Origin: Bradyrhizobium prioriisuperbiae
Lineage (GTDB): Bacteria; Pseudomonadota; Alphaproteobacteria; Rhizobiales; Xanthobacteraceae
Reading direction: 5' to 3'
DNA: 64,000 nucleotides
Assembly: GCF_032397745.1 (NCBI RefSeq)
Contig: NZ_CP135921.1
Coordinates: forward strand, 682,001 to 746,000
Positions 20,281 through 30,164 of this stretch are shown piece by piece. Numbering within the stretch: position 1 is the first letter of the stretch; every line of letters starts with the position of its first letter. Made by a program: the position numbers and the translations under genes. The notes under the pieces were generated by a model. That model saw only the letters and a program-made list of their open reading frames with translations. It was not told where the DNA came from and did not search any database.

Positions 20281-21135
20281 ATGACATCGATCCGATTTAT
20301 CGACCACCTGAACGAGCTCGCGCGCGACGTCGACATCATCCTCAGCGATATCTGGGGCGTGATCCACGATGGCCTGGTCGCATTCCCCGAGGCGTGCGCC
20401 GCCTTGCAGACCTTTCGCGAGGGGGGCGGCACGGTGGTGATGATCACCAATGCGCCGCGGCCGGCGGACTCGGTGCAGCGGCAATTGCGCAAGCTCGGTG
20501 TCGCCGACGCGACCTACGACGCCATCGTGTCCTCGGGCGATCTCACCCGGCAGTTCATCACCGGGCATCGCGGCGAGAGCGTGCACAAGATCGGTCCCGA
20601 GCGCGACAATTCGATCTTCCGGGAGCTCGACGTCACCTTCGCTCCGCTGGATCAGGCTGACTACATCGTCTGCACCGGGCCGTTCGACGACGAAACCGAA
20701 ACCCCGGACGATTACCGCGACATGATGCAGCAGGCGCTGGCGCGAAAACTGACGTTGATCTGCGCCAATCCCGACATCGTGGTCGAGCGCGGCGACCGGC
20801 TGATCTACTGCGCCGGCGCCATCGCCGAGCTCTACCGCTCGCTCGGCGGCGAGGTGATCTTCTACGGCAAGCCGCACCGGCCGATCTACGACCGGGCGCT
20901 CGGCATCGCCCACGAGTTGCGCCGGAACACCACCGGCCGGGTGCTGGCGATCGGCGATTCCGTCCGCACCGACCTGACCGGCGCCAATGCGATGGGACTC
21001 CATTGCGTGTTCCTGACCCGCGGCATCCATGCCGACGAGTTCAAGGGACTCGATCGGCTCAATGAGAAGGCCGTGCGCAAATTCTTCGGCGACACCAAGC
21101 CGCCGCTGGCGCTGATGCATGAGTTGAAGTGGTAG
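20281..21135 (+). CDS. HAD-superfamily hydrolase, TIGR01459 type
   Basis: 284 residues. HAD motif I is the variant LSDIWGVIHDG; motif II lies near MITNAPRP; motif III Lys in YGKPHRPIY; motif IV as IGDSVRTDLTGANAMG. This is the class IIA (NagD-like) HAD group with a large cap. Substrate unknown; a sugar or nucleotide phosphate is likely from the family. In many Rhizobiales this gene sits close to ribF, but here about 16 kb intervenes. The last 41 bases, ending exactly at the TAG, recur at 30124-30164. Confidence 0.9.
   Translation: MTSIRFIDHLNELARDVDIILSDIWGVIHDGLVAFPEACAALQTFREGGGTVVMITNAPRPADSVQRQLRKLGVADATYDAIVSSGDLTRQFITGHRGESVHKIGPERDNSIFRELDVTFAPLDQADYIVCTGPFDDETETPDDYRDMMQQALARKLTLICANPDIVVERGDRLIYCAGAIAELYRSLGGEVIFYGKPHRPIYDRALGIAHELRRNTTGRVLAIGDSVRTDLTGANAMGLHCVFLTRGIHADEFKGLDRLNEKAVRKFFGDTKPPLALMHELKW
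21095..21135 (+). repeat. Direct repeat, left copy (3' end of the HAD gene)
   Basis: 41 bases running from CCAAGCCGCC to AAGTGGTAG, identical to 30124-30164 and in the same orientation. The left copy encodes the last 12 codons plus stop of the HAD gene. Identity stops sharply at both ends. The two copies bracket 21136-30123. Confidence 0.95.
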
Positions 21136-21183
21136 ATCAGATAGTCCGCCGTTGCCATCCGACGTCGACAAATCAAGAGCTAT

Positions 21184-22155
21184 CTAGGCCGCACCTATCG
21201 CAATGCCTACGCCGAGCACGATGATGCCACCGAGCACGATCTGGAACACCGCCTGCATGAACGGCGTGTCCATGTAGCGGGCACGGATGTAGGCGATGGC
21301 CCAGAGTTCGAAGAACACGACAACAGCCGCGATCGCCGTGGCGATCCAGAACGCGTTTGACCATGAATCGGGAACGAGATACGGCATCGTGTGACCGAGC
21401 CCGCCGAGTGTCGTCATCAAGCCGCAGATCCCGCCGCGCAGCCAAGGCGAGCCGCGCCCCGTCATCGAGCCATCATCGGACAAGGCCTCGGCAAATCCCA
21501 TGCTGATGCCCGCTCCGATCGAAGCCGCAAGTCCGACCAGGAACGTCTGCCAGTTCTGGTGAGTGGCGAAGGCCGCAGCGAACAGCGGCGCGAGGGTCGA
21601 GACCGATCCGTCCATCAGCCCGGCAAGACCGGGCTGCACGTACTGAAGAACGAACATCCGCTTGCGGGTCTTGTCTTCCTCCGCGCGAACATCCGGACTG
21701 AGGATTTTATCTGTCAGTCTCGCCGCAAGGCTTTCGTGGCCTTTTTCCAACTCGGCGAGGTCGCCGAGAAGCTTGCGAACTCCCACATCGGTGGCCTGCT
21801 CCGCGGCCTTCGCATAGAAACGCTCGGCCTCGAACTCCATCGTCTCGGCTTCCTTGCGGATGGCATCGAGCGAGAGATTCTTGGTCAGCCAGATCGGACG
21901 CCGGCGCAGGAAACCTTTGACATCGCCGCGGCGGATCGGAGGCAGATTGGGTCCGAAGCGCTGCTCGTACATTTCGAGCAGCAGATGACGATGGCCTTTT
22001 TCCTGTTCAGCCATCTCCTCGAATATTTTTGCGGAATCCGGATATCGCCCGGCCAGATCTTCGGCGAAGCTCATGTAGATGCGGCTGTCTTCCTCTTCCC
22101 CCGAAATCGCGACAGCCAGGACTTCCCGCTCGGTCAACTCGGAAAATGCCTTCAC
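21184..22155 (-). CDS. mbfA: Membrane-bound ferritin-like iron exporter MbfA (rubrerythrin-VIT1 fusion)
   Basis: 323 residues. The N-terminal ferritin-like/rubrerythrin domain (about 1-155) has repeated Glu-rich iron-ligand helices (SGEEEDSRIY, EMAEQEKGHRHLL, EAETMEFEAERFYAKAAE, LAELEKGHESL). The C-terminal VIT1/CCC1-type membrane domain (about 165-320) shows GLMDGSVSTLAP and AASIGAGISMGFAEALSDDG. MbfA of Bradyrhizobium and Agrobacterium exports iron and protects against iron/peroxide stress under Irr control. The GTG at 22155 was chosen: AAAGGG lies seven bases upstream. The adjoining palindrome at 22173-22195 matches an Irr box. Confidence 0.93.
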   Translation of the reverse strand: MKAFSELTEREVLAVAISGEEEDSRIYMSFAEDLAGRYPDSAKIFEEMAEQEKGHRHLLLEMYEQRFGPNLPPIRRGDVKGFLRRRPIWLTKNLSLDAIRKEAETMEFEAERFYAKAAEQATDVGVRKLLGDLAELEKGHESLAARLTDKILSPDVRAEEDKTRKRMFVLQYVQPGLAGLMDGSVSTLAPLFAAAFATHQNWQTFLVGLAASIGAGISMGFAEALSDDGSMTGRGSPWLRGGICGLMTTLGGLGHTMPYLVPDSWSNAFWIATAIAAVVVFFELWAIAYIRARYMDTPFMQAVFQIVLGGIIVLGVGIAIGAA

Positions 22156-22172
22156 TTCTTGACCCTTTTTCA

Positions 22173-22195
22173 CACTTTAGAATAATTCTAAAGTG
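22173..22195 (-). promoter_or_regulatory. Iron control element (Irr box) upstream of mbfA
   Basis: A perfect 23-base palindrome with core TTTAGAATAATTCTAAA, 18 bases before the chosen mbfA start. It matches the ICE motif recognised by the heme-responsive regulator Irr in Bradyrhizobium. Its position predicts repression of mbfA by Irr when iron is low. Confidence 0.9.
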
Positions 22196-22338
22196 ATTTA
22201 TAGAGTCGTTTTGGCGGCGGTCAAACCTTTTGTGCGGCAACGGCAATCGCCCGAACGGTCCCCGCTGGGGCTTTTGCATTCGATTTGAAATTTTGCGCCG
22301 TCCCGGCCGGACCGCGAGGGCTCTTCAATCGCGTCGAG

Positions 22339-28872: not shown

Positions 28873-28921
28873 TGAAGGTCCGCTCGGGCCATGGCAGCAA
28901 AGGACTGCTGCTGTCCCTCTC

Positions 28922-30007
28922 TCATCCTGCCCTGGTATCTACACGCCTGACCGGCAGGGTAAACCGGAAAATGGCGCCGCGCGGCTGTCGCGACGCAGCC
29001 GAGATCGCTCCGCGGTGCGCCTCGATGATGGTGCGGCTGATCGCGAGCCCCATCCCCATGCCCTGCGGCTTGGTGGTGTAGAACGCATCGAACAGGCGGT
29101 CGCGCGCTTCGACTTGAAAACCAATTCCGGTGTCTTCGATCGTAAGCGAAACTGCCGCGGCACCTTCGTCGGCCGTTCGCAGAGTCAGTATGCGCTGGCC
29201 GTCCACCACCGATCCCATGCTCTCGATCGCGTTCATGATCAGGTTGAGGACAGCCTGCTGTAGTTGCACCTTGTCTCCGCTTACCGGCGCGATGTCCGCC
29301 TGCAAAATAAGCTGCAGCGAGACCTCGTGTCGTTGAATCTCACCGCGGATCAAGGCAAGCGTGTCGACGACGAGATCGTTCAGACTCAACGGCGCATTGC
29401 CCGGCGTCGCGTGCCTGGCAAGGGCACGGACCCGTCCGACGATCTCGCCGGCACGGTTCGCATCCCTGACGATGCGCTCAAACGCCTGTTTCGCTTTGTC
29501 GAGATCCGGCGTCGCATTGGCGAGCCAGCGCAGGCCCGCGTTGCCATTCGTGACCACCGCCGCCAGTGGCTGGTTCACCTCATGGGCAATCGAGGCCGCC
29601 AGTTCCCCCAGGGTCGTAACCCTGGCGACATGGGCAAGCTGGGCGCGCGCCTCCTCGGCCGCGATCCGCGCCGCTTCCATCCTGACAACGAGATAGGTCG
29701 TCGCCGCGATCGCCAACAGGCTGATGACGCAGTTGATCAATCCTGATCGGGGCGAGCCGGACGGCGTGATCAGATAACTGACCAGTGTCAGGGCCACGCA
29801 GATACCGCCAATCAGAAGGATGCCGCGTCTCTGGCAGAAGCCGACCGATAGCAGGATGACCGCCACATAAAACACGGCGGCGGCGATTTCGAGATCGGTG
29901 ATGGTGTCCAGGGCGAAGATCGCCATCGCCAGCACCGCCGCGACAAGCGGCAGCACCGGCCCGCGGCCGTTGGCCCAGATGCTCGCGCGACGTGTCTTCG
30001 GCAACAC
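28922..30007 (-). CDS. Membrane sensor histidine kinase, FixL/NtrB-like
   Basis: 361 residues. About four N-terminal membrane helices with almost no periplasmic loop (residues 15-108) replace the PAS domain of FixL, so the signal is probably sensed within the membrane. H-box ASIAHEVNQPLAAV carries the phospho-accepting histidine; N-box NLIMNAIESM; G1 DTGIGF; F/G2 FDAFYTTKPQGMGMGLAISRTIIEAHRG. Partner of the FixJ-like regulator directly downstream. The FixL-type HPK4 class normally pairs with FixJ-type regulators, as here. Confidence 0.93.
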   Translation of the reverse strand: MLPKTRRASIWANGRGPVLPLVAAVLAMAIFALDTITDLEIAAAVFYVAVILLSVGFCQRRGILLIGGICVALTLVSYLITPSGSPRSGLINCVISLLAIAATTYLVVRMEAARIAAEEARAQLAHVARVTTLGELAASIAHEVNQPLAAVVTNGNAGLRWLANATPDLDKAKQAFERIVRDANRAGEIVGRVRALARHATPGNAPLSLNDLVVDTLALIRGEIQRHEVSLQLILQADIAPVSGDKVQLQQAVLNLIMNAIESMGSVVDGQRILTLRTADEGAAAVSLTIEDTGIGFQVEARDRLFDAFYTTKPQGMGMGLAISRTIIEAHRGAISAASRQPRGAIFRFTLPVRRVDTRAG

Positions 30008-30042
30008 CGGTCTCCCCAGGCGATTCGAAAGGAATTCGGATG

Positions 30043-30062
30043 TTAGAGCATGATCGGGGCAA
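30043..30062. repeat. Fragment of the AGAGCATGATC repeat family
   Basis: TTAGAGCATGATCGG matches one arm of the longer elements at 58236-58336 and 60560-60717. Only this arm remains, between the histidine-kinase start and the right-hand direct repeat. Confidence 0.5.
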
Positions 30063-30123
30063 GGGGATGCCAGTTTCTGCGGCCGCGAACCGGCCCTCTG
30101 ATTGCAACGCGTTCAGGAAGCAG

Positions 30124-30164
30124 CCAAGCCGCCGCTGGCGCTGATGCATGAGTTGAAGTGGTAG
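30124..30164 (+). repeat. Direct repeat, right copy (orphan HAD 3' end)
   Basis: Exact 41-base copy of 21095-21135. Here it has no upstream HAD coding sequence, so it is a displaced fragment rather than a gene. The bases on both sides differ from those flanking the left copy. Confidence 0.95.

What the first reader, a model, noticed from the sequence alone, without database searches (positions are those of the whole stretch)
21095..30164. 41-base exact direct repeat brackets a 9 kb minus-strand block at the 3' end of the HAD gene
The last 41 bases of the HAD gene (21095-21135) recur exactly, in the same orientation, at 30124-30164. Identity ends at the stop codon and stops sharply on the other side. 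Between the copies lie mbfA, a fused porin with an ABC transporter, possible small ORFs and a two-component system, all on the minus strand. Duplication of a gene's 3' end around a block is the classic trace of a site-specific or recombination-mediated insertion. No integrase or transposase is visible, so the mover is either lost or acted in trans. In related genomes the HAD gene usually lies close to ribF, which fits an insertion here.
Basis: partly seen in the sequence, partly recalled or inferred. Interest (0 to 1): 0.78.

Follow-up and report, generated by a model that had tools for sequence, protein, structure and literature searches.

The report
Gene island without its own integrase
A 9-kilobase set of sensing, transport and iron-export genes sits at the end of a housekeeping gene in a Bradyrhizobium-like bacterium, bracketed by an exact copy of that gene's last 41 letters, which most likely marks a mobile island that lacks its own integration enzyme.

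Summary
The last 41 bases of the HAD gene (21095-21135) recur exactly, same orientation, at 30124-30164 and nowhere else in the 9.08-Mb genome. Insertion is supported: in relatives HAD is followed within 0.02-0.5 kb by a CheY-like gene, then ribF (73 of 91 distinct loci), and the closest relative found has 90 bp there. The extra DNA is 15.3 kb, not 9; the second 41-mer splits it into the 9.0-kb block and 6.3 kb. Two Bradyrhizobium genomes show the same anatomy with different repeats and cargo: 31 bp around 7.0 kb, 25 bp around 1.2 kb, no recombinase found. In 1.286 Mb of the window's genome the only longer two-copy repeats spaced 2-60 kb are 48-bp repeats at two tRNA 3' ends, each beside a broken tyrosine integrase. 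Best reading: the HAD 3' end is an attachment site and the block is an integrase-less, CIME-like island carrying a two-component system, a porin/ABC operon and mbfA. Site-specific recombination is inferred; duplication during break repair remains possible. New member of a known kind, modest interest.

The parts
20281..21135 (+). HAD-type hydrolase gene (TIGR01459), intact; target gene
   Evidence: TIGR01459 172 bits over cut-off 103.75; full-length matches in relatives
21095..21135 (+). Repeat copy 1: last 41 nt of HAD with stop codon (proposed attachment site, gene side)
   Evidence: Exact match to copy 2
21184..22173 (-). mbfA, iron exporter
   Evidence: NF045676 549.7 bits over cut-off 450
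22339..23643 (-). ABC transporter ATPase with C-terminal AAA-associated domain
   Evidence: PF00005, PF09821
23658..25391 (-). ABC transporter permease with two permease domains
   Evidence: PF00528, two stretches; relatives in 37 of 148 other genomes at E 1e-60
25395..27371 (-). Outer-membrane barrel + OprB porin
   Evidence: PF13505, PF04966; 1,910 bp 98.4% identical to a paralogue at about 2.72 Mb
28237..28872 (-). Response regulator, receiver + LuxR-type DNA-binding domain
   Evidence: PF00072, PF00196
28922..30007 (-). Sensor histidine kinase
   Evidence: PF00512, PF02518
30124..30164 (+). Repeat copy 2: 41-nt remnant of the HAD tail (proposed original tail, far side)
   Evidence: Exact match to copy 1; no further similarity around it
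30165..36410 (.). Second extra stretch, lineage-specific; several plus-strand ORFs including one of 1,272 aa (32534-36352)
   Evidence: Absent between HAD and the CheY-like gene in relatives; the 1,272-aa protein has no match in 148 other family genomes
36411..36868 (-). Hairpin spacer (36411-36469) and CheY-like gene (36470-36868), the ancestral neighbour of HAD
   Evidence: Spacer aligns with the 90-bp spacer of L060; CheY-like protein 91-98% identical in most relatives; name given by eye

Best explanation
The 9.0-kb block is an integrated island whose attachment site is the 3' end of the HAD gene. Recombination between a HAD-tail sequence on the incoming DNA and the chromosomal tail left a complete HAD gene at one end (copy 1) and the other tail 9.0 kb downstream (copy 2). 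No recombinase gene remains: it was deleted, or an integrase encoded elsewhere acted in trans, as for cis-mobilizable elements (CIMEs). The cargo is a coherent unit: a two-component system beside a porin and ABC importer that it probably regulates, plus the iron exporter mbfA. Shown: the repeat and its uniqueness, absence of the block at this place in relatives, similar repeats around unrelated cargo in two other genomes, lack of a recombinase. Inferred: site-specific recombination as the cause, which copy is original, the regulation, and that the block cannot now move by itself.
For: Single pair of 41-mers in 9.08 Mb. Empty site (90 nt) in the closest relative found; gap under 500 nt in 73 of 91 distinct loci. 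Two other genomes have HAD-tail repeats bracketing inserts (G137: 31 nt, 7.0 kb; G274: 25 nt, 1.2 kb), all three repeats covering HAD positions -16 to -2. In 1.286 Mb of the same genome the two longer comparable repeats are tRNA 3' ends whose islands hold broken tyrosine integrases about 60 nt from a repeat. The kinase, regulator, porin, permease, ATPase order is kept elsewhere in another genome (L192). Repeat length, target type and block size lie within what reviews describe for such elements (passages).
Against: No element with an integrase was found at this site in the inserts examined (by eye; 57-59, 62, 63, 87 by Pfam) and none in viral or phage collections. Only 2 of 9 distinct loci with gaps of 1 kb or more have the repeat, and only 1 of 265 Bradyrhizobium genomes has two tails at the locus by pattern. 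The G137 repeat includes 15 nt of fast-changing spacer, odd for a foreign attachment site. No common motif was seen at the inner ends. No excision data.
Confidence: 0.6

Rival explanations
1. Illegitimate capture at a staggered double-strand break: foreign DNA was joined into a break near the HAD stop codon, and filling in long overhangs duplicated 41 nt of host sequence. No recombinase is needed.
For: No recombinase in three inserts; repeat lengths differ (41, 31, 25 nt) and the copies match exactly, in G137 including spacer DNA; Ku is encoded in this genome. A paper title on end joining and uptake of foreign DNA in bacteria (Dupuy 2019) was seen only in a reference list; its text is not held.
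Against: All three repeats cover the last coding bases of HAD rather than scattering over the spacer; no other HAD-cheY insert of 1 kb or more shows a flank repeat of 12 nt or longer (7 of 7); the comparable repeats in the same genome are tRNA attachment sites. Overhangs of 25-41 nt would be unusual (inference).
Confidence: 0.22
2. Homologous recombination: DNA from a close strain that already carried the block and a HAD tail was exchanged through HAD and downstream genes, or a circle carrying the tail entered by a single crossover over 41 nt.
For: Hotspots without mobility genes are linked to recombination at flanking core genes (passages of PMC5635113); the HAD-cheY interval gains unrelated genes in several genomes.
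Against: Exchange through flanks explains spread, not the origin of the repeat; the incoming circle would have had to carry an identical HAD tail already.
Confidence: 0.12
3. Assembly artefact: the second 41-mer or the placement of the block is a false join.
For: 41 could be an assembler word length; no reads were available.
Against: The genome is one 9.08-Mb contig; the joins fall at a stop codon and beside complete genes; two other genomes show the same anatomy with other repeat lengths.
Confidence: 0.03

Closest known systems
Cis-mobilizable elements (CIMEs), e.g. at the 3' ends of rpmG, rpsI, fda and rplL in Streptococcus salivarius composite islands (passages of PMC7563491)
   Same: Short direct repeats, one covering the end of an intact protein gene; 1.2-13 kb of cargo; no integrase or conjugation genes
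   Different: No related integrase-bearing element seen at this site; no tandem partner with a recombinase; no transfer data
Integrative mobilizable elements and genomic islands at protein-gene 3' ends (passages of PMC5704250)
   Same: 8-60-bp repeats and 3' ends of housekeeping genes as sites
   Different: Those elements normally encode an integrase; none here
tRNA-Glu (52.9 kb) and tRNA-Lys (11.7 kb) islands of the same genome
   Same: Exact direct repeat of a gene 3' end (48 nt) around extra DNA
   Different: Both retain broken tyrosine-integrase genes beside a repeat; the target is a tRNA
Integrase-less hotspots of gene turnover (passages of PMC5635113)
   Same: Unrelated gene sets between the same two core genes in several genomes, often without mobility genes
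   Different: A precise direct repeat brackets the block here

Membership tests
[quoted passage not shown]
   41-nt direct repeat, one copy being the HAD 3' end; that the repeats work as attachment sites is not shown
CIME (cis-mobilizable element) | Lacks integration and transfer genes | tested here: met
   Six-frame Pfam scans of 21136-30123 find none
CIME (cis-mobilizable element) | Derived by deletion from an integrative conjugative or mobilizable element | tested here: inconclusive
   No remnant of such genes in the block and no parent element found at this site
CIME (cis-mobilizable element) | Moves by accretion with an incoming element | not testable with these tools
   Needs excision and transfer assays
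Integrative mobilizable or conjugative element / prophage | Encodes its own integrase | tested here: not met
   None in six frames
DDE transposon | Transposase and terminal inverted repeats | tested here: not met
   No transposase; none of the 25 inverted repeats listed of 41 joins the block ends

The most novel reading that the evidence does not exclude
The HAD (TIGR01459) 3' end in Bradyrhizobium and its kin is a recurrent entry point for small cargo blocks that carry no recombinase, moved in trans by an integrase not yet identified or by a repair process that copies tens of bases of the target. Either would help explain how gene-turnover hotspots without mobility genes gain genes.
Probability: 0.15. 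Interest if true: 0.65.

Novelty: new member of a known kind. Interest (0 to 1): 0.38.

Why it matters
Many gene-turnover hotspots lack recognizable mobile-element genes (passages of PMC5635113). Here three inserts at one gene end keep a footprint, a direct repeat of the gene's 3' end, but no recombinase, so 'lost or trans-acting integrase, or break repair?' becomes testable at one defined site. It also corrects the local map: 15.3 kb between HAD and the CheY-like gene is lineage-specific.

Tried and rejected
Whole-block duplication within the genome: the porin has a paralogue 97% identical in protein at about 2.72 Mb, but only 1,910 bp of the porin gene match there (98.4%); nothing else of the block does. 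Copying or conversion of the porin gene is likelier than duplication of the block.

Second HAD gene decayed to its tail: the flanks of the two copies show no similarity. Ordinary syntenic segment: relatives lack the block at this place.

HAD tail or gene on mobile elements: 41-mer not in plasmids; tail pattern in no viral contig; HAD protein in no viral contig or phage record.

Transporter operon on plasmids: pieces match 1,318 of 72,556 plasmid records, none covering 80% of the query; common transporter homology, not informative.

HAD tail duplicated in many Bradyrhizobium: by pattern (up to 2 mismatches) 255 of 265 genomes match and five have two matches (G190, G274, G280, G298, G307). Only in G274 do both lie together at the HAD locus. 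G280 has two HAD genes. For G190, G298 and G307 the second match lies elsewhere with 2 mismatches. The pattern misses short second tails such as that of G137.

HAD-ribF gaps in 146 Bradyrhizobium genomes were read by eye, not by script. Ten gaps above 1.2 kb were noted and all ten genomes examined (G137, the other nine). In G186 the extra DNA lies beyond the CheY-like gene; G151, G216 and G281 have HAD-cheY gaps of 636-797 nt. In the wider family some more distant genomes (e.g. G012, G064, G086, G120, G136) have gaps of about 4-7 kb that were not examined.

Without result: ARAGORN and Rfam on the window, 0 hits. Paper searches listed no paper on a HAD 3'-end integration site, but the lists were capped (15 of 25, 5 of 5, 6 of 111, 8 of 289, 5 of 1,351) and only open-licence papers are held.
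Full report
Observation. The last 41 nt of the HAD gene (21095-21135, stop codon included) recur exactly and in direct orientation at 30124-30164. It is the longest exact direct repeat in the window; the next is 23 nt. A search of the whole 9,083,454-bp genome with a 71-base query found these two places only. The 300 nt before and after the two copies are no more alike than shuffled sequence.

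What lies between. Reading on the minus strand: histidine kinase, LuxR-type response regulator, a stretch without a convincing gene, Omp-barrel+OprB porin, double ABC permease, ABC ATPase, mbfA. In L192 (genome G089, taken as Tardiphaga robiniae Vaf-07 because one of its contigs has the same length as that strain's record) the order kinase, regulator, a further receiver-domain gene, porin, permease, ATPase is kept at another place, without an mbfA match in the 19.5 kb read. Of the nine permease loci read, L193 keeps porin, permease and ATPase, and the others mainly permease and ATPase. The block is therefore a coherent transport unit plus mbfA. Its GC (0.63) is like that of the flanks (0.63-0.65). 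Its porin is 98.4% identical over 1,910 bp to a paralogue at about 2.72 Mb, while the rest of the block has no match there.

Is it an insertion? In relatives the usual order is HAD, CheY-like gene on the opposite strand, ribF, ileS (cheY, ribF and ileS are named by eye). After removing duplicate loci, 91 loci with HAD and the CheY-like gene on one stretch have a median gap of 215 nt: 73 under 500 nt, 9 of 500-1000 nt, 9 of 1 kb or more (the window is not counted). The closest relative found, Bradyrhizobium sp. U87765 SZCCT0048 (L060; HAD 85% identical in protein, 83.5% in DNA), has 90 nt. Its hairpin-containing spacer aligns with window 36411-36469, just before the CheY-like gene. So 21136-36410, about 15.3 kb, is extra here, and copy 2 divides it into 9.0 kb and 6.3 kb. 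The 1,272-aa protein of the 6.3 kb has no match at E 1e-10 in the 148 other family genomes searched and 10 homologues besides itself among the 7,995 candidates scored from a database of 5.8 billion proteins, the best 84% identical.

Has it happened elsewhere? Exact repeats were sought in all loci with HAD-cheY gaps of 480 nt or more. The other seven distinct loci of 1 kb or more have no flank-to-flank repeat of 12 nt or longer; by eye two of them, L130 and L177, carry transposase genes. A pattern scan of 265 Bradyrhizobium genomes found one with two tails at the locus, G274; it could not see the shorter second tail of G137. So the event is recurrent but rare. The block, the G137 insert and the G274 insert share no Pfam family, and no common motif was seen by eye at their inner ends.

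Where is the mover? Six-frame Pfam scans with stops as X found no recombinase, transposase or relaxase in the 9.0-kb block, the 6.3 kb, the G137 insert or the G274 insert. Only 48 nt and 116 nt are free at the ends of the block.

A yardstick inside the same genome. In 1.286 Mb around the window (260001-1546000), exact direct repeats of at least 22 nt, seed in at most four copies, spaced 0.6-100 kb, give 44 pairs. The three longest two-copy pairs spaced 2-60 kb are 48 nt at the 3' end of tRNA-Glu (52.9 kb apart), 48 nt at the 3' end of tRNA-Lys (11.7 kb) and the 41 nt at HAD (9.0 kb). Each tRNA island holds a broken tyrosine integrase about 60 nt from a repeat: a 290-aa piece whose longer homologues are about 450-490 aa and often named integrase (no Pfam or NCBIfam integrase hit of its own), and a 165-aa piece with PF00589 at 27.9 bits, just over the 27.1 cut-off. 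Repeat-bracketed islands with decayed integrases thus occur in this genome, and the HAD block fits as one whose integrase is gone or never travelled with it. This was 14% of the genome; the rest was not scanned.

Mechanism. The anatomy (3' end of a protein gene, short direct repeat, gene left intact, cargo without recombinase, 9 kb) matches what is described for decayed or cis-mobilizable elements: 8-60-bp repeats and 3' ends of housekeeping genes (passages of PMC5704250) and classical CIMEs of 1.2-13 kb (passages of PMC7563491). In G274 copy 2 is followed by GA, giving TGA as in 4 of the 5 nearest HAD genes listed, while its intact gene ends TAG; this fits an original tail displaced downstream. 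I put site-specific integration with loss or trans-action of the integrase at 0.6.

Against it. No integrase-bearing element was found at HAD. The G137 repeat includes 15 nt of spacer, and spacers differ by eye even between genomes with about 93% identical HAD genes, which is easier to explain by copying host DNA at a staggered break. Ku is present. Break repair gets 0.22, homologous exchange 0.12.

Novelty. Islands of this kind are known; the TIGR01459 HAD 3' end as their site was not among the papers listed in five searches of an open-licence library, whose lists were capped. New member of a known kind.

Noticed in passing
window 30425-31107: A stretch is tandemly duplicated about 470 bp apart (30425-30641 and 30898-31107, 83-93% alike); the ORFs 30946-31596 and 31593-32525 look tail-collar-like by eye but have no Pfam or PHROG match.
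   Followed up: partly
window 32534-36352: Protein of 1,272 aa without a Pfam family, with a weak PHROG tape-measure match (E 1.3e-5) and 10 homologues found, the best 84% identical and one in Inquilinus ginsengisoli at 56%. A six-frame scan gave a weak SseC match below the curated cut-off (17.4 against 30.2 bits).
   Followed up: partly
window 25397-27306 and G000:C1:2722952-2724861: Porin gene bodies 98.4% identical over 1,910 bp with unlike signal-peptide ends and flanks, suggesting gene conversion or copying; an IS110-like transposase gene (by eye) lies about 0.2 kb from the second copy.
   Followed up: partly
G000:C1:353984-365758 and 853556-906477: Two tRNA islands (tRNA-Lys, tRNA-Glu) with 48-nt repeats and broken tyrosine integrases.
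   Followed up: partly
L034 and L048, HAD-cheY gap: Both gaps hold a serine-hydrolase-like gene: PF00144 in G137, by eye only in G001.
   Followed up: no
L172, L173, L174 (HAD-cheY gaps of G105, G283, G167): Inserts of 5.6-6.1 kb with metabolic and regulatory genes, no bracketing repeat and, by eye, no integrase; an IS3-like remnant borders the one in G283.
   Followed up: partly
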